Assembly (NCBI GenBank): GCA_013314715.1
Contig: JABUFC010000017.1
Coordinates: forward strand, 1 to 57,357
Origin: Bacteroidales bacterium
GTDB lineage: Bacteria; Bacteroidota; Bacteroidia; Bacteroidales; GWA2-32-17
Reading direction: 5' to 3'
DNA length: 57,357 nt
The notes beneath the pieces are model-generated. The model worked only from the letters and a program-made list of their open reading frames with translations, did not search any database and was not told the DNA's origin. This document shows, one piece after another, positions 11,770 through 17,051 of the stretch. The translations under genes were made by a program, and so were the position numbers. Numbering within the stretch: position 1 is the stretch's first letter; every line of letters starts with the position of its first letter.

Positions 11770-13524
11770 TTATTCTCCTATGTCGTAGTCGTTACGATTT
11801 TTTATTTTGGGTTGTTCTTGTATTTTATTGCTAGATTTTGATTTTATTAATTGATTGTTTTTAAATATGGCTTCGAAAATTATTTTACCATTGGGTTCGT
11901 AATAGATAGTTCGACCATTTTTAAGTCCATCTTTATATTCAACAATGCTTTCGATGGGTCCCATGGGGTAATATGTTTTCCACGTTCCATCGGGGCGATT
12001 TTCTTTGTAATATTCTTCTCTGAGTAGAGCACCACGTTGGTCATAATAAAGCCATTTGCCAATTTTATTGCCTTTATTATAGTTTCCTTGTATATTAATT
12101 TTGCCGTTTTCGTAGTAAGTTTCAAAAGTACCATGATATTGATGATTAAGTCTGTTTTCAATACGTTGCAAATTACCATTTTCCCAATAATAAATGCTTT
12201 TGCCTTCGGGTACACTATCTTTGTAATGTATTTCATATTTTTTATTGCCATTTTCCCAATAGCCTTTCCATAAATCTTGCATTACACCATTTACAAAATT
12301 CCCTTCTAATTTTTTGTTGCCGTTTTCGTACCAGCTAACCCAATATCCCTCTTCTTTTCCTTCATTAAATTCTCCTTCGTGTTCTTTGTTTCCGTTTTCG
12401 TAATAAACTGTTATTTTTCCGTGTTTTAAGCCTTCTTTAAAGTTTACTATTTTCCATATACTATCGTTGCTATACCAATAAGTCCAAGTTCCGTCCATTT
12501 TGCCATTTTTGTAAAAGCCTTCATTCCCTTTATGGCCGTCAGTACGCCAATAGGTCCATTTGCCATTTTGTACATCATTTTCAAAGTAACCTTCAATATC
12601 TTTTTTCCCATTTTCAAGAAACCATATAGCAGTTCCATGTTTTTTATTATTGTTAAAATTTATTTGCGATTCTATTTGACCGTTTTGATAGTATTTAGTA
12701 TGAAGGCCTTGACGCAAATCTTTATTAAAAATACCTTCCATTTTCTTTTGTCCGTTATCGTAATAAAATACCCATAAACCTTCTTTTAAGCTGTCTTTAA
12801 GTGTGCCTTCCATTTCTTTTTGGCCGTTTGGGTAGTACGAAATGTTATTGCCACTGATATAATTAAGTTCTGATTTAAGTTTGCCATCAGGATACCAGCT
12901 TTTCCAAGTCCCTACATGTTTTCCATTGTCGAAAAAGCCTATAGTCATAGTTTTTCCATTTTCATAAAATGCTTCCCATTTCCCATTTTCTAGTCCATTT
13001 TTAAATTCTCCTTTTTCTTTTATTTTGCCAGATGGATAGAATTCTTCGTAAGTTCCGTTGCCATTCAATATAGTTTGTTTTCCATCGCTTGTCCAGTATT
13101 GGTTTAATAGGCATTTGCCGTTTTTACATGTTAATTCTTTTTTCTTTTGTCCATTGCTATAATAATAAGTCCATAAACTATCTTTTTCGTTAAGTTTAAA
13201 AAAACCATTGATTTTTAGTTGTCCATTTTCGTACCATTCTTGATAATTACCACGTTGAAGTCCGTATTTAAATTCTCCCTCGTTTTGTTTTTGACCGTTT
13301 GGATAATAATAAATAACTTTACCGTGAACAATGCCGTTAATAAAATCAATTTCTTGTTTGATATTACCATTTGAGTCGTAAAATTTCCAACGACCATATT
13401 CGGCTCCATTTTTTATGATGCCTTCACTTGATTTTTTACCGTTTTTGTGATAGGTAACAACAGTGTCTTGTGCACTAATAACTAATGAAATGCTGATAAA
13501 AAATATAATCAAACTTAATCTCAT
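11770..13524 (-). CDS. Secreted MORN-type (YwqK-like) repeat protein
   Basis: 584 residues with a signal peptide ending near residue 18 (ISLVISAQ). Nearly all the rest consists of about 23 units of ~23 residues built on YYxNGQKxxEGxFKNGxxxGxWxx. These are MORN_2-type repeats, which form an extended beta sheet ladder. Databases often label such proteins YwqK family antitoxin, but nothing here supports a toxin-antitoxin role: no toxin gene is adjacent and the protein is exported. The C-terminal ~30 residues are charged and lack a T9SS sorting domain. Function unknown; a scaffold or surface role is possible. A second, shorter relative lies at 22607-23452. Confidence 0.85.
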   Translation of the reverse strand: MRLSLIIFFISISLVISAQDTVVTYHKNGKKSSEGIIKNGAEYGRWKFYDSNGNIKQEIDFINGIVHGKVIYYYPNGQKQNEGEFKYGLQRGNYQEWYENGQLKINGFFKLNEKDSLWTYYYSNGQKKKELTCKNGKCLLNQYWTSDGKQTILNGNGTYEEFYPSGKIKEKGEFKNGLENGKWEAFYENGKTMTIGFFDNGKHVGTWKSWYPDGKLKSELNYISGNNISYYPNGQKEMEGTLKDSLKEGLWVFYYDNGQKKMEGIFNKDLRQGLHTKYYQNGQIESQINFNNNKKHGTAIWFLENGKKDIEGYFENDVQNGKWTYWRTDGHKGNEGFYKNGKMDGTWTYWYSNDSIWKIVNFKEGLKHGKITVYYENGNKEHEGEFNEGKEEGYWVSWYENGNKKLEGNFVNGVMQDLWKGYWENGNKKYEIHYKDSVPEGKSIYYWENGNLQRIENRLNHQYHGTFETYYENGKINIQGNYNKGNKIGKWLYYDQRGALLREEYYKENRPDGTWKTYYPMGPIESIVEYKDGLKNGRTIYYEPNGKIIFEAIFKNNQLIKSKSSNKIQEQPKIKNRNDYDIGE

Positions 13525-13651: not shown

Positions 13652-13674
13652 AAGTGAATTAAATGATAACGATT

Positions 13675-14562
13675 ATGAAACGATTTTTATTCTTATTATT
13701 TATGTTTATTGTTTTTTGTGGAATAGGACAAAATATTCCCAACGCTGATTTTGAAAATTGGACAGGAGGCAATCCCAATGGTTGGCAAACACCTAATGCT
13801 TTTACTCAACAGTATGGTGTTGTTACTGTTACTCAGGAAACGGTTAACCCTCATAGTGGAACTTATTCAGTTAAATTAGAAACAAAATCAATTTTTGGCT
13901 ATGCTGTAACTGGTTTAATAACAAATGGACAGATATCGGTAAATTTAAGCAATCCAAATCCCATAACCATTTTAGGTGGTACTCCTTTTACTGAACGCCC
14001 CAATCATTTTAAAGGATATTTTCATTATACACCGGCATCGGGTGATTATTGTACGATAGTAGCTTTGTTGTTAAAGAAAAATGTGCAAACAAATCAGTTT
14101 GATACGGTTGGGGTTGCTCAATATATTAATAATACATCTGTTACTGGTTGGACGATGTTCGATGCTCCATTTGCTTATGCAATGGGCGATACTCCAGATA
14201 CTATGCAAATAGTTGCGGTGTCGTCAAATCCCAATGCCGCTATTGTCGGTAGTACCTTATGGGTTGACCATTTATATTTCGAAGGTGGTACGTTGGGGAA
14301 TAATATTTTAAAGTTAAATGAACAGATACAGGTTTTTCCAAACCCTGTAAACGATTTGTTAAATATTTATTTTGGTAAACCAACGACAGGTCAAACAAGT
14401 ATAACCATTTTTAATGCAACTGGACAACGAGTTAAACAAAGCATTATACCAGCAGGTACACAAATTTCGTCATTGAATATTTATGATTTGCCTAAAGGTA
14501 TTTATATTATACAGATTCAAAATAATAGCGACAGATTTGTTCAGAAAATTAGTGTGAAATAA
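13675..14562 (+). CDS. Secreted protein with type IX secretion (Por) C-terminal sorting domain
   Basis: About 295 residues. Signal peptide MKRFLFLLFMFIVFCGIGQ. The mature part (about 25-210) looks like a beta-sandwich, carbohydrate-binding-like (PNADFENWTGGNPNGWQT... at its start is common in such secreted modules). The last ~75 residues form a type A sorting domain: VFPNPVNDLLNIYF, then ITIFNATGQRV, and LPKGIYIIQI near the end. This domain directs export through the T9SS and surface attachment. No catalytic residues recognised. It is followed by two hairpin terminators and stands alone on the plus strand. Confidence 0.88.
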   Translation: MKRFLFLLFMFIVFCGIGQNIPNADFENWTGGNPNGWQTPNAFTQQYGVVTVTQETVNPHSGTYSVKLETKSIFGYAVTGLITNGQISVNLSNPNPITILGGTPFTERPNHFKGYFHYTPASGDYCTIVALLLKKNVQTNQFDTVGVAQYINNTSVTGWTMFDAPFAYAMGDTPDTMQIVAVSSNPNAAIVGSTLWVDHLYFEGGTLGNNILKLNEQIQVFPNPVNDLLNIYFGKPTTGQTSITIFNATGQRVKQSIIPAGTQISSLNIYDLPKGIYIIQIQNNSDRFVQKISVK

Positions 14563-14590
14563 AAAGTTTTCATTATAAACTTTTTATTTT
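14561..14590 (+). terminator. Terminator after the T9SS cargo gene
   Basis: AAAAAGTTT (14561-14569), 7-base loop, AAACTTTTT (14577-14585), followed by more T. Starts at the stop codon. A second hairpin follows at 14606. Confidence 0.65.
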
Positions 14591-14605
14591 TTCTATAAAA
14601 TAGCT

Positions 14606-14632
14606 AAAGGTCATCTTTCGATGACCTTTTTT
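14606..14632 (+). terminator. Hairpin between the T9SS gene and tRNA-Leu
   Basis: AAAGGTCAT, loop CTTTCG, ATGACCTTT, followed by a T run on the plus strand. It lies just beyond the 3' end of the minus-strand tRNA and could serve both strands, although the minus-strand T tract is poor. Confidence 0.7.
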
Positions 14633-14634
14633 AG

Positions 14635-14718
14635 TGCCCAGGACAAGATTCGAACTTGCACACCCTTGCAGGCGCCAGCCCCTCAAGCTGGTGTGTCTAC
14701 CAATTCCACCACCTGGGC
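14635..14718 (-). tRNA. tRNA-Leu, anticodon GAG
   Basis: 84 bases on the minus strand. The acceptor arms GCCCAGG (14718-14712) and CCTGGGC (14642-14636) pair fully, with discriminator A. The anticodon stem CCAGC/GCTGG encloses loop TTGAGGG, giving anticodon GAG (leucine, CUC/CUU). A ~15-base variable region fits a class II tRNA. T loop TTCGAAT. The terminal CCA is not encoded. Confidence 0.97.
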
Positions 14719-14728
14719 ATTGAGGTTG

Positions 14729-14758
14729 CAAAAATACAAAAAAAATAAATTCAACCAA
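14729..14758 (-). promoter_or_regulatory. Promoter of tRNA-Leu
   Basis: Minus strand TTG (14758-14756), 19 bp, TATTTTTG (14736-14729). Predicted start about 4 bases before the mature 5' end, which leaves little leader to trim. Confidence 0.7.
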
Positions 14759-14776
14759 CTTATTGTTGAAAAAATA

Positions 14777-15112
14777 TTAATACAGTAAATGTTTCTTATC
14801 ATTTTTTATCCAACCAGCGTCGTATTTACTATCGGTAAAATAGATAATTAAATCGGCGTCGTATTTTGAATCAACAAAAAAGATTTTCTTTTTAGCATCG
14901 TATTTTGAGTCAGTAAAGTACCACAAGCCTTTGTTGTCTTCGGCATCGTATTTCGATTGGCATTTATAAACAACCAAATCGGCATCGTATTTTGAGCTTG
15001 CTACATACACTTTGATATCAGCATCGTATTTTGAGTCGGTGCTGAAAATGGTTTGTGAAAAAACTACCATTTTAGCAAAAACAAATAAAGAAGTAATAAT
15101 TATTTTTCTCAT
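14777..15112 (-). CDS. Small secreted protein with six SKYDA repeats
   Basis: 111 residues. Signal peptide MRKIIITSLFVFAKMVVFSQ. The mature protein contains SKYDA six times, at spacings 13, 13, 16, 13 and 13, each followed by a short hydrophobic strand such as DLVVYK or KKIFFV. This suggests a small beta-solenoid with one pentapeptide per turn. From memory it resembles small Bacteroidota proteins grouped as DUF6150, but I cannot confirm that. It is a paralogue of 15181-15513, which has the same spacers but YKSDA in all six places. No catalytic residues; function unknown. Confidence 0.8.
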   Translation of the reverse strand: MRKIIITSLFVFAKMVVFSQTIFSTDSKYDADIKVYVASSKYDADLVVYKCQSKYDAEDNKGLWYFTDSKYDAKKKIFFVDSKYDADLIIYFTDSKYDAGWIKNDKKHLLY

Positions 15113-15180
15113 TCTTAATTATTTTAAATTATTATTATGTAAAATGTTGAGCTAAATTAGTTTTCAATGACAAATTATAT

Positions 15181-15513
15181 TTAATACATTAAATGTTGTT
15201 TTTCTTTTTTTATCCAGCCGGCATCGCTTTTGTAATCTGAAAAATATACTACAATATCAGCATCACTTTTGTAATCGACAAAAAAGATTTTCTTTTTAGC
15301 ATCGCTTTTATATTGTGCAAAGTACCAAAGTCCTTGATTACCTGTAGCATCGCTTTTGTATTGACATTTATACACAACAAGATCAGCATCGCTTTTATAC
15401 TTAGTTACATAAACTTTTACATCCGCATCGCTTTTGTATTGACAGCTATAAACAACTTGTGAGAAAATACTTGATGTAAAAAACATCATTAATAAAAATA
15501 AAAATACTTTCAT
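15181..15513 (-). CDS. Small secreted protein with six YKSDA repeats
   Basis: 110 residues from the ATG at 15513 (15516 is also an ATG). The longer frame reaching 15603 starts before the predicted promoter and is rejected. Signal peptide MKVFLFLLMMFFTSSIFSQ. Six YKSDA pentapeptides at spacings 13, 13, 16, 13 and 13, exactly as in the neighbour at 14777-15112. Spacers are nearly the same in both (DLVVYKCQ, GLWYF, KKKIFFVD, GWIK), and at one point 26 DNA bases in a row are identical. The Ser and Tyr of the pentapeptide are swapped in every unit. Own promoter at 15548-15578. Confidence 0.82.
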   Translation of the reverse strand: MKVFLFLLMMFFTSSIFSQVVYSCQYKSDADVKVYVTKYKSDADLVVYKCQYKSDATGNQGLWYFAQYKSDAKKKIFFVDYKSDADIVVYFSDYKSDAGWIKKEKQHLMY

Positions 15514-15547
15514 CATATCAATATATTTTTTGTGGTTAAAGACGTAA

Positions 15548-15578
15548 CAAATATAATACCATTTAATTAAAAAACAAA
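15548..15578 (-). promoter_or_regulatory. Promoter of the YKSDA-repeat gene
   Basis: Minus strand TTTG (15578-15575), 19 bp, TATATTTG (15555-15548): an exact Bacteroidota promoter. The TTTG is the end of the T tract of the preceding terminator, so the two signals touch. Confidence 0.8.
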
Positions 15579-15610
15579 AAAAGGTTGTTGCAATAAACAA
15601 CAACCTTTTT
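15578..15610 (-). terminator. Terminator of the beta-helix lipoprotein gene
   Basis: Perfect 13-bp stem (15578-15590 with 15598-15610), 7-base loop, T-rich on both strands. It follows the stop at 15636 of the minus-strand lipoprotein gene. Confidence 0.88.
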
Positions 15611-15635
15611 GGCGATAATTTATGTAGAATGGAGA

Positions 15636-17051
15636 TTAGTAATTGGTATTTTGAGGATCAAAGTTTGCCCAACCTGCTGTCCAATCTGAATTTCCAAAAG
15701 CACCCTTAAAGTTTACAATTTCAAAGAATGGATTTTGTAATACTGAATGATTAAAGTTAGCTCCTGTTAATAGAGGTGAATTTGCTTGTGGAAGAACTGA
15801 TGGGTTGGTTAAATTCCATGCATTTGCATTTAATAAAATATTGTCGAATGTTGCAATTTGGTTGTTGTATCCTTGTGTGTTGAACCATGTTTGAATATCG
15901 AAGCTACTTCCGCTTGCTACAGCTAAATTCGAAGTACAACCAACGATATAATTGTCTCTAAAAATTAAATCGCCATTTTGAGCATTGTTTTCGGCATAAG
16001 TACCGTCAATTAATAGACCAACAGGATAACCACAAATAACAGAGTTAAGTATTTTAATTTTTGTATTTCTACGTAAATGTGCACCGCGTTTGTATTGTTG
16101 GTTGTAAGTCGAATTATTGGGATTCATAGGACCAAGAATAGTAACATTTGAGAAAATGCCGCTTGTAAATGGTTCTGCAGTTGTGCCTTGTGCATCGTTA
16201 TCGCTTTCGAATCCATTTGATCCTGATTGGTCAGCGATATTAGGATCGCGTAAAGCGAAGCAAAACTGTGCCATACCACTCCAACCGTTGTCGGTATCAA
16301 ATTCATCGTCCCATCCTCTGAATGAAATAAGATGTTTAACATTTACAGTTCCACCAAAGAATTCGTATGAGTCGTCGCCGTTAAACGATACTTGTACATA
16401 ATCTATTTCTGTTTGGTCGCCAACACCTGCTAGTGTTAAGCCATTTATTTCCTGATTAGGTTGGAATGCAATACCAGCAAATTCTATACGAACATATTTT
16501 AGTTTGCCGGAATTATCATGAGGATCGGTACCTCCGTAATAAGCATCTGGTCCGCCTTCAATTAAACCTTCGCCACCAGGAAGGTTTACGGGAGCTTTAC
16601 CACATATTATAATTCCTCCCCAGTCGCCATAATCGCGTTGTCCAGCTGGTTTGTTTGATGTAAATACTATAGGTTTTTGAGCTGTACCTACTGCATTAAT
16701 TTGTCCACCTCTTTTAATAATTAAAGAACCTTTAGTGTCTTTGTCGCCTTTAATTATGGTTCCGGGTTCAATGGTTAATGTAACACCAGATTCTACATAA
16801 ACAAAACCTTTTAATAAATATTTATGATTTGCTTTTAAGGTTTGACTGGTAGTAATACTTCCTTGTAAAATAATAGTCGATGTATCGCAATCGGTACAAT
16901 ATTGACATGAACCATCATCTTTTTCGGCATCGGGGTCGTAATTTAACGCTGTTTTGTCTGTACAACCTTCTTTCTTTTTACACGATGTAAATGTACCTGA
17001 AATAAGTACAAAACTTGCTAAAATTAGTAATAATGTTACTTTTTGTTTCAT
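15636..17051 (-). CDS. Outer-surface lipoprotein, right-handed beta-helix type
   Basis: 471 residues. Lipobox ...GTFTSC puts the acylated Cys at about 24, followed by KKK. Next comes a GCTDKTALNYDPDAEKDDGS module (about 33-52), a short cysteine motif frequent in secreted proteins of marine Bacteroidota. The remainder resembles parallel beta-helix proteins: GVTLTIEPGTIIKG, GSLIIKRGGQINAVG and KPIVFTS. It lies directly after a TonB-dependent receptor but is separated from it by a terminator, so it probably has its own promoter. It may be the surface partner of that receptor, but the ligand is unknown. No C-terminal T9SS domain seen. Confidence 0.82.
   Translation of the reverse strand: MKQKVTLLLILASFVLISGTFTSCKKKEGCTDKTALNYDPDAEKDDGSCQYCTDCDTSTIILQGSITTSQTLKANHKYLLKGFVYVESGVTLTIEPGTIIKGDKDTKGSLIIKRGGQINAVGTAQKPIVFTSNKPAGQRDYGDWGGIIICGKAPVNLPGGEGLIEGGPDAYYGGTDPHDNSGKLKYVRIEFAGIAFQPNQEINGLTLAGVGDQTEIDYVQVSFNGDDSYEFFGGTVNVKHLISFRGWDDEFDTDNGWSGMAQFCFALRDPNIADQSGSNGFESDNDAQGTTAEPFTSGIFSNVTILGPMNPNNSTYNQQYKRGAHLRRNTKIKILNSVICGYPVGLLIDGTYAENNAQNGDLIFRDNYIVGCTSNLAVASGSSFDIQTWFNTQGYNNQIATFDNILLNANAWNLTNPSVLPQANSPLLTGANFNHSVLQNPFFEIVNFKGAFGNSDWTAGWANFDPQNTNY

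What the first reader, a model, noticed from the sequence alone, without database searches (positions are those of the whole stretch)
14777..15513. Adjacent paralogues with all six repeats switched from SKYDA to YKSDA
Both proteins have six pentapeptides at identical spacing (13, 13, 16, 13, 13) and nearly identical spacers, including 26 identical DNA bases in a row. Yet every pentapeptide in one is SKYDA and in the other YKSDA. Twelve coordinated changes with conserved spacers are hard to explain by simple drift. Either the units are homogenised by gene conversion or each protein is selected for one uniform ladder of side chains. In a beta-solenoid, Ser and Tyr would form stacked rows, like a regular binding surface. 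It may act as a recognition code.
Basis: partly seen in the sequence, partly recalled or inferred. Interest (0 to 1): 0.78.

Follow-up and report, generated by a model that had tools for sequence, protein, structure and literature searches.

The report
All-or-none repeat ladders in DUF6150 proteins
Two neighbouring small secreted bacterial proteins each carry one five-letter motif six times, and relatives show that all six copies usually change together while the rest of the protein stays much the same, which suggests that the motifs must match each other in a fold resembling that of a knotted protein.

Summary
P1 (14777-15112, -) holds six SKYDA and P2 (15181-15513, -) six YKSDA, spaced 13,13,16,13,13; the longest identical run is 27 bases, not 26. 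Both belong to Pfam DUF6150 (PF19647), function unknown.

The pattern holds family-wide. In 266 complete proteins, motif identity is 0.84 between units of one protein but 0.45 between the same unit of different proteins. Position 3 is aromatic in all six units or in none in 257 of 266. One pair of relatives shares 47 of 54 other residues yet differs at all 18 ladder positions.

Where it could be compared, synonymous codons in motifs are no more alike than in spacers, so gene conversion is not the driver. P1 and P2 are old paralogues, not a local switch. Mixed proteins exist.

Both predicted models resemble only Q9PR55, a solved 7_1-knotted protein (Z 6.2 and 6.6, 62 residues); no solenoid was listed. 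I could not compute the topology.

Best reading: selection for six matching motif helices that contact each other. A recognition code is untested: co-resident copies differ (45 of 47 pairs), but no more than chance.

The parts
14777..15112 (-). P1, 111 aa, DUF6150 protein with six SKYDA units; N-terminal signal peptide by inspection
   Evidence: PF19647 E 1.6e-41
15181..15513 (-). P2, 110 aa, DUF6150 protein with six YKSDA units; N-terminal signal peptide by inspection; lies upstream of P1 in transcription order
   Evidence: PF19647 E 5.8e-28
15020..15034 (-). P1 unit 1 SKYDA (aa 27-31)
14981..14995 (-). P1 unit 2 SKYDA (aa 40-44)
14942..14956 (-). P1 unit 3 SKYDA (aa 53-57)
14894..14908 (-). 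P1 unit 4 SKYDA (aa 69-73)
14855..14869 (-). P1 unit 5 SKYDA (aa 82-86)
14816..14830 (-). P1 unit 6 SKYDA (aa 95-99)
15424..15438 (-). P2 unit 1 YKSDA (aa 26-30)
15385..15399 (-). P2 unit 2 YKSDA (aa 39-43)
15346..15360 (-). P2 unit 3 YKSDA (aa 52-56)
15298..15312 (-). P2 unit 4 YKSDA (aa 68-72)
15259..15273 (-). P2 unit 5 YKSDA (aa 81-85)
15220..15234 (-). P2 unit 6 YKSDA (aa 94-98)
14874..14900 (-). 27-base run identical to 15278-15304 (unit 4 DA + KKKIFFV spacer), P1 copy
15278..15304 (-). 27-base run identical to 14874-14900, P2 copy

Best explanation
P1 and P2 are two old tandem paralogues of the DUF6150 family: small exported proteins (export inferred from the N-terminal hydrophobic segment) built of six short strands and a short C-terminal bridge joined by six turns, each turn holding a one-turn helix in the pentapeptide (predicted). 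The chain path resembles that of the 7_1 torus-knotted protein Q9PR55 (predicted; the knot itself was not tested). In such a compact, many-times wound fold the six turn helices would come together and their side chains at positions 1, 3 and 4 contact their counterparts in other units (inferred). A set works well only if all six match: Tyr at position 3 with Ser at 1 (SKYDA), or the reverse (YKSDA), or both aromatic (YDYQA), with opposite or neutral charges at positions 2 and 4. Selection on the protein, not DNA homogenisation, keeps each ladder uniform. Ladder types are inherited as types and replaced as a whole over long times, probably through short-lived mixed states such as those seen in a few relatives.
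For: Both proteins are full-length PF19647 matches. Uniform within, different between: within-protein motif identity 0.866 against 0.452 for the same unit of different proteins, while spacers show the reverse (0.417 against 0.605), n=174; a second set of 70 from other orders, fetched afterwards, gives 0.833/0.557 for motifs and 0.487/0.543 for spacers; pooled 266: 0.841/0.448, and at 70% clustering (94 proteins) 0.788/0.411. The unit's index does not matter for motifs (same-unit 0.452, different-unit 0.449). Aromatic at position 3 all-or-none in 169 of 170 against about 6 of 170 when shuffled; 67 of 70 in the new set. Whole-ladder replacement on a nearly unchanged scaffold: L062/L047 and L213/L118 share 47 of 54 other residues but differ at 18 of 18 ladder positions; L059/L072 share 47 of 54 and differ at 0 of 18. 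Charge matching of positions 2 and 4: like charges in 19 of 1596 units, 328 expected; majority motifs of 94 clustered proteins, 1 like-charged. Against DNA homogenisation. Structure: model pLDDT 89.7 and 89.6, three helical residues at each motif; of 101 and 120 chains compared only Q9PR55 entries are listed with Z of 2 or more (best Z 6.2 and 6.6, 62 residues, 2.2-2.3 A).
Against: Z 6.2-6.6 is below the 8 that the tool calls for; the best Foldseek E is only 0.015 and 0.031 and no sequence search links DUF6150 to Q9PR55. Only one of five P2 models folded confidently. No coordinates were available, so contact between motifs, burial and knotting are inferred. The resemblance of units 3 or 4 apart at position 2, expected for a (2,7) torus, was found in the first set (P<0.001 at 80% clustering, 0.04 at 70%) but not firmly confirmed in the second (P 0.019 on all 70, 0.096 at 80%, 0.41 at 70%; whole motifs 0.17, 0.12, 0.45). 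Mixed proteins exist (L233, L207, L227, L228, L251, L057, L065), and uniformity falls in the most divergent members (within 0.566, between 0.303 at 50% clustering, n=15). The proteins are related, so counts are not independent events.
Confidence: 0.5

Rival explanations
1. The uniform ladder is an exposed, regular binding surface: six identical polar/aromatic side-chain sets bind a repetitive partner (a glycan, another copy of the protein, a mineral), and each ladder type has its own partner. The constraint is outward recognition rather than inner packing.
For: The motif residues are mostly polar or aromatic while unit-specific conserved residues lie in the strands (spacer positions 2, 4, 6). 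Types are kept over near-saturated synonymous divergence and replaced whole on a nearly unchanged scaffold. Co-resident copies carry different majority motifs in 45 of 47 pairs in 34 genomes. The proteins look exported.
Against: The difference between co-resident copies is what chance gives for so many types (same pairs expected 2.8, observed 2, P 0.47). No general partner gene was found: the commonest neighbour clusters, a methyltransferase (14 of 108 loci) and RimM (10 of 108), look like housekeeping genes and occur with part of the family (one member of each named by Pfam). The charge matching of positions 2 and 4 points to pairing inside the protein.
Confidence: 0.28
2. The units are homogenised at DNA level by gene conversion or unequal exchange between repeats.
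For: Exchange between units may happen: in L040 the SKYDA copy has four units instead of six through an in-frame loss (one contig, assembly not checked). Synonymous identity in motifs is somewhat above that expected from each locus's codon usage (0.539 against 0.476; above in 63 of 93 proteins), and Asp codons are more alike in motifs than in spacers (0.726 against 0.623). 62 of 109 serine columns use one codon block only.
Against: Matched for amino acid, synonymous codon identity is 0.628 in motifs and 0.606 in spacers; the match rests on Asp, Phe, Lys and Tyr, as other residues have under 40 spacer pairs. In 47 of 109 serine columns one protein uses both unlinked serine codon blocks, P1 among them. 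Converted tracts would have to end within about 15 bases every time, as spacers stay unit-specific.
Confidence: 0.06
3. Founder effect: each ladder type arose by fresh amplification of a single unit, so uniformity is a relic.
For: Uniform repeats of recent origin are common in general (recalled).
Against: Spacers are unit-specific and shared across types (47 of 54 residues identical between a YESQA and an SDYKA protein), so the six-unit scaffold predates the types; synonymous sites of that pair are near saturation (16 of 45 codons identical).
Confidence: 0.04
4. Consecutive units stack as coils of a beta-solenoid, giving straight Ser and Tyr rows.
For: Regular short repeats with one strand each; solenoids with 12-residue coils exist (recalled).
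Against: No solenoid stands in the lists for either model; the leading matches are Q9PR55. Adjacent units do not resemble each other more than distant ones (lag 1 at position 2: z -2.3 in the first set at 80% clustering; z 0.1 to 0.6 in the second set).
Confidence: 0.08

Closest known systems
Pfam PF19647 (DUF6150)
   Same: P1 and P2 match nearly the whole profile far above its cut-off (140.7 and 97.2 bits, cut-off 27).
   Different: Nothing in kind; they are ordinary members. The family has no stated function in Pfam's title, and the library searched holds no paper with the words DUF6150 or PF19647.
Q9PR55 of Ureaplasma urealyticum, 7_1-knotted (PDB 8iwa, 8iwb, 8jrm) and its relative P73136, predicted 5_1 knot
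   Same: Sequential alignment of 62 residues at 2.2-2.3 A, Z 6.2 (P1) and 6.6 (P2); the only entries listed with Z of 2 or more among the chains compared.
   Different: No detected sequence relation; the aligned range of P1 is 84 residues long against 62 in Q9PR55, so it has longer or more repeats; knot topology of P1 not computed.
Designed knotted circular tandem repeat proteins (PMC10598012)
   Same: Tandem repeats laid on a torus; their geometry gives the expected neighbours of each repeat.
   Different: Designed and alpha-helical; the pentafoil design misfolded according to its abstract.
Knotted Solenoid fold, PNAS 2026 (PMC13123833)
   Same: A knotted bacterial repeat protein.
   Different: A triangular beta-helix with a 3_1 knot; no relation to DUF6150 in the passages I read.

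Membership tests
PF19647 DUF6150 | score above the curated cut-off over the whole profile | tested here: met
   P1 140.7 bits, profile 4-98/98; P2 97.2 bits, profile 3-98/98; cut-off 27
7_1-knotted Q9PR55-like fold | same chain path over the knotted core (Q9PR55 residues 27-83, PMC9278004) | tested here: inconclusive
   62 residues aligned, chain 23-84, 2.2-2.3 A, Z 6.2 and 6.6, the only entries listed with Z of 2 or more, but below Z 8
7_1-knotted Q9PR55-like fold | backbone forms a 7_1 (torus) knot | not testable with these tools
7_1-knotted Q9PR55-like fold | detectable sequence homology to Q9PR55 | tested here: inconclusive
   profile and single-sequence searches of PDB sequences do not list it at E up to 10
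7_1-knotted Q9PR55-like fold | (2,7)-torus order: units 3 or 4 apart are neighbours and should resemble each other | tested here: inconclusive
   seen in the first set, same sign but weak in the second
Pentapeptide repeat proteins (four-sided beta-helix) | contiguous five-residue repeats (definition recalled) | tested here: not met
   units are 13 or 16 residues apart with strands between
Beta-solenoid with stacked consecutive coils | one coil per unit, neighbours in sequence are neighbours in space | tested here: inconclusive
   no solenoid among the listed matches, no excess resemblance of adjacent units; absence from the list does not exclude it
Anti-phage defence protein | match to a PADLOC model | tested here: not met
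   no match for P1 or P2 at E up to 0.01

The most novel reading that the evidence does not exclude
DUF6150 is a widespread family of natural torus-knotted repeat proteins, possibly with more windings than Q9PR55, in which six identical turn helices form a closed ring. The ring accepts only self-matching side-chain sets, so the family evolves by replacing the whole ring on a fixed knotted scaffold: a discrete alphabet of ladder types (64 majority motifs in 266 proteins) that could serve as a recognition or assembly code between paralogues.
Probability: 0.25. Interest if true: 0.85.

Novelty: new variant of a known kind. Interest (0 to 1): 0.62.

Why it matters
It would give a natural family of many sequences with a fold like the most complex solved protein knot, so that the sequence rules of such folds could be read from evolution. 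It is also a clean case of concerted change of scattered residues without DNA homogenisation: 18 positions differ together while 47 of 54 others stay. That makes a general question testable, namely how symmetric repeat proteins cross from one self-consistent residue set to another, with simple swap and mixture experiments on a protein of about 90 residues.

Tried and rejected
Gene conversion between units: rejected on synonymous codons, with the limits told under the rival. Founder amplification: rejected on shared unit-specific spacers. Recent local switch: rejected by recurring tandem pairs and by nearest neighbours in the tree (few columns, 89 of 163 inner branches open, so I count no switches from it).

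Recognition code by paralogue avoidance: tested, negative (2 of 47 co-resident pairs share a majority motif, 2.8 expected). I listed 38 genomes by hand, 34 had two scored copies; some of these copies are divergent, and a few further copies were not fetched.

Period of 3-4 units as a signature of a two-lap torus: hypothesis formed, tested on nearly the same set with clustering and then on new genomes; only partly repeated, so not used as proof.

Sequence link to Q9PR55: four PDB searches do not list it; a fifth with L030 gave only weak hits. Weak PDB hits of P1 to Fc receptors (best E 0.0048) are taken as chance. The P2 list also holds SPOUT-type RNA methyltransferases at E 0.98 and worse, taken as chance. 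BFVD viral structures: no match with E under 1. P1 not found on plasmids; the L013 relative not found on phages or plasmids. PHROGs gave weak partial matches for P2 only, best E 1.7e-4 over 33 residues. Promoter scan of 14500-15700: 9 promoter-like sites against 6.9 in shuffles. Solenoid and pentapeptide-repeat families did not appear among the fold matches, which does not exclude them.

Rows dropped before counts: 11 of 185 unique sequences without six gapless units; four divergent rows (174 to 170), these and two more in the tree (174 to 168) and; 6 of 76; 16 of 282. The genome-contig scan returned 68 loci close to P1 by design.

Full report
What is there. On the minus strand two genes lie head to tail: P2 (15513 to 15181) and then P1 (15112 to 14777). 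P1 has six SKYDA units starting at residues 27, 40, 53, 69, 82 and 95; P2 has six YKSDA units starting at 26, 39, 52, 68, 81 and 94. The spacings 13, 13, 16, 13, 13 are exact. The longest identical DNA stretch is 27 bases. Outside the units and the signal peptide 41 of 62 residues are identical, and at those 41 residues 31 codons are identical (0.76, expected 0.57 from the window's codon usage), which fits shared ancestry. Both start with a hydrophobic stretch ending in SQ, like an export signal (by inspection). A tRNA-Leu gene lies just downstream (14634-14718).

What they are. Both match Pfam PF19647, DUF6150, over nearly the whole profile. The library searched holds no paper with the words DUF6150 or PF19647. 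The family is patchy in the window's phylum: 12 of 198 genomes drawn from the phylum and 105 of 393 from the order of the window's genome, the window's own genome counted in both, and 2 of 98, 7 of 128, 41 of 298, 16 of 164 and 31 of 44 in the orders of five relatives. Relatives on named contigs are nearly all labelled Bacteroidota. P1 was not found on plasmids.

The pair is old. Tandem pairs with the YKSDA-type gene (YRSDA in L024) upstream of the SKYDA-type gene on the same strand occur in five distinct loci: the window, L021, L024, L028 and L040, in that order in all five. In a tree built without the motif columns P2 is nearest to YKSDA proteins of other genomes and P1 to SKYDA proteins of other genomes. 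The tree is poorly resolved.

The ladder is family-wide. I extracted the six units from 185 unique proteins, 174 of them complete. Motif identity is 0.866 between different units of one protein, 0.452 between the same unit of two proteins, 0.449 between different units of two proteins. Spacers behave in the opposite way: 0.417, 0.605, 0.372. Motif position 3 is the strictest (0.948 within, 0.361 between), then 4 (0.903) and 1 (0.889), then 2 (0.710); position 5 is mostly Ala everywhere. A second set of 70 complete proteins from other orders, fetched afterwards, shows the same for motifs (0.833 within, 0.557 between) and a smaller contrast for spacers (0.487 and 0.543). Pooled with extra copies (266 complete of 282 unique), motifs give 0.841 and 0.448, and 0.788 and 0.411 after clustering at 70% (94 proteins); 60 of 266 have six identical units and there are 64 majority motifs. 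Examples are YESQA, YENQA, YDYQA, HEYQA, ADYKA, NRYDA, SESYA, TESWA, WKSEA, YASRA.

All or none. At position 3 aromatic and non-aromatic residues are mixed in 1 of 170 proteins, at position 1 in 8 of 170; shuffled units give 164 and 157. In the new set it is 3 and 7 of 70, pooled 9 and 22 of 266. Mixed proteins therefore exist. The sharpest cases are pairs: L062 (YESQA) and L047 (SDYKA) share 47 of 54 other residues but differ at 18 of 18 ladder positions (positions 1, 3, 4 of six units), as do L213 and L118; L059 and L072 share the same 47 of 54 and differ at none. Codon identity at unchanged residues in these pairs is low (16, 20 and 22 of 45), so the scaffold is held by selection over a long time and the ladder behaves as a discrete type.

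How the ladder is kept. If DNA exchange homogenised the units, synonymous codons would be more alike in motifs. They are not, as far as they can be compared: 0.628 in motifs and 0.606 in spacers, matched for amino acids, which rests on Asp, Phe, Lys and Tyr; Asp alone is higher in motifs (0.726 against 0.623). In 47 of 109 serine columns the same protein uses both TCN and AGY serine codons, in 62 it does not; P1 uses both. Motif codons are somewhat more alike than locus codon usage predicts (0.539 against 0.476), but spacer codons are as alike as motif codons. Selection on the protein is the better account. Positions 2 and 4 also obey a charge rule: like charges in 19 of 1596 units (328 expected), opposite charges in 615 (277 expected), with both K-D and D-K versions. 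This suggests direct pairing, within or between units.

Fold. AlphaFold2 models of P1 and P2 from 40-sequence alignments have mean pLDDT 89.7 and 89.6; four of five P1 models but only one of five P2 models were good. Each motif holds three helical residues between short strands. Among the chains that Foldseek ranks highest in the PDB (101 and 120 compared) the only entries listed with Z of 2 or more are those of Q9PR55, an 89-residue Ureaplasma protein whose predicted 7_1 knot (PMC9278004, first two of three parts read) was confirmed by crystallography (PMC13352647, passages; Hsu et al. 2024 itself is not held and was not read). The alignment covers 62 residues (chain 23-84) at 2.2-2.3 A and so spans nearly all of the knotted core (27-83). 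Z 6.2-6.6 alone is modest, and no sequence link was found, so I claim likeness, not membership. AlphaFold can invent knots (PMC10672856, passages), and I had no coordinates to compute topology. In a torus fold with seven repeats wound twice, unit k would neighbour units k+3 and k+4 (my inference from the geometry in PMC10598012, passages). Deviating residues at position 2 follow that pattern in the first set but only weakly in the second. I treat it as a lead. Other papers (PMC11184937, PMC11223836, PMC13123833) were seen in passages only.

What it does. The best-supported step is selection for a self-matching set of six motifs. That the motifs touch each other in a compact wound fold is inferred. 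Whether the ring is a mere structural lock or a binding surface is open. Co-resident copies nearly always have different ladders (45 of 47 pairs, 34 genomes), but shuffling gives the same, so there is no sign of an insulation code. No general partner gene stands out: the commonest neighbour clusters are a methyltransferase (14 of 108 loci) and RimM (10 of 108) (one member of each named by Pfam).

Verdict. The proteins are ordinary members of an uncharacterised Pfam family. Its explanation shifts from gene conversion or a solenoid to protein-level selection in a fold that looks like a natural protein knot.

Noticed in passing
L040:3292-3546 (+): A SKYDA-type copy with four units instead of six; the missing part runs between two units in frame, so exchange between units may delete repeats. 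Beside it lies a complete YKSDA gene.
   Followed up: partly
L028:2932-3285 (+): Units alternate SKYDA NKYDA SKYDA NKYDA SKYDA NKYDA.
   Followed up: no
L067, L069, L070, L075: Motif position 2 runs with a period of about three units (for example Q E E / A E E with L at position 4 of units 3 and 6 in L070).
   Followed up: partly
L013:985-1701 (-): A 239-aa frame that begins with several 13-residue units of the YAYEA type followed by a serine-rich stretch, without the usual export segment; a DUF6150 match.
   Followed up: partly
L085-L113 among others: In 14 of 108 loci a methyltransferase gene and in 10 of 108 a rimM gene lie near the DUF6150 gene (one of each named by Pfam).
   Followed up: partly
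window 11770-13524 (-): A 584-aa protein with MORN_2 repeats (E 2.8e-63).
   Followed up: no
window 13663-14562 (+): Protein with a PCMD domain and a Por secretion-system C-terminal sorting domain.
   Followed up: no
window 15578-15610 and 14606-14629 (-): Two terminator-like hairpins on the minus strand, one just upstream of P2 and one beyond P1 and the tRNA-Leu gene; 0.6 expected in shuffles.
   Followed up: no
G000:C15:46308-46604 (L003): A third, divergent DUF6150-like protein in the same genome, below the family's cut-off, whose units are not uniform (E 5.5e-4).
   Followed up: partly
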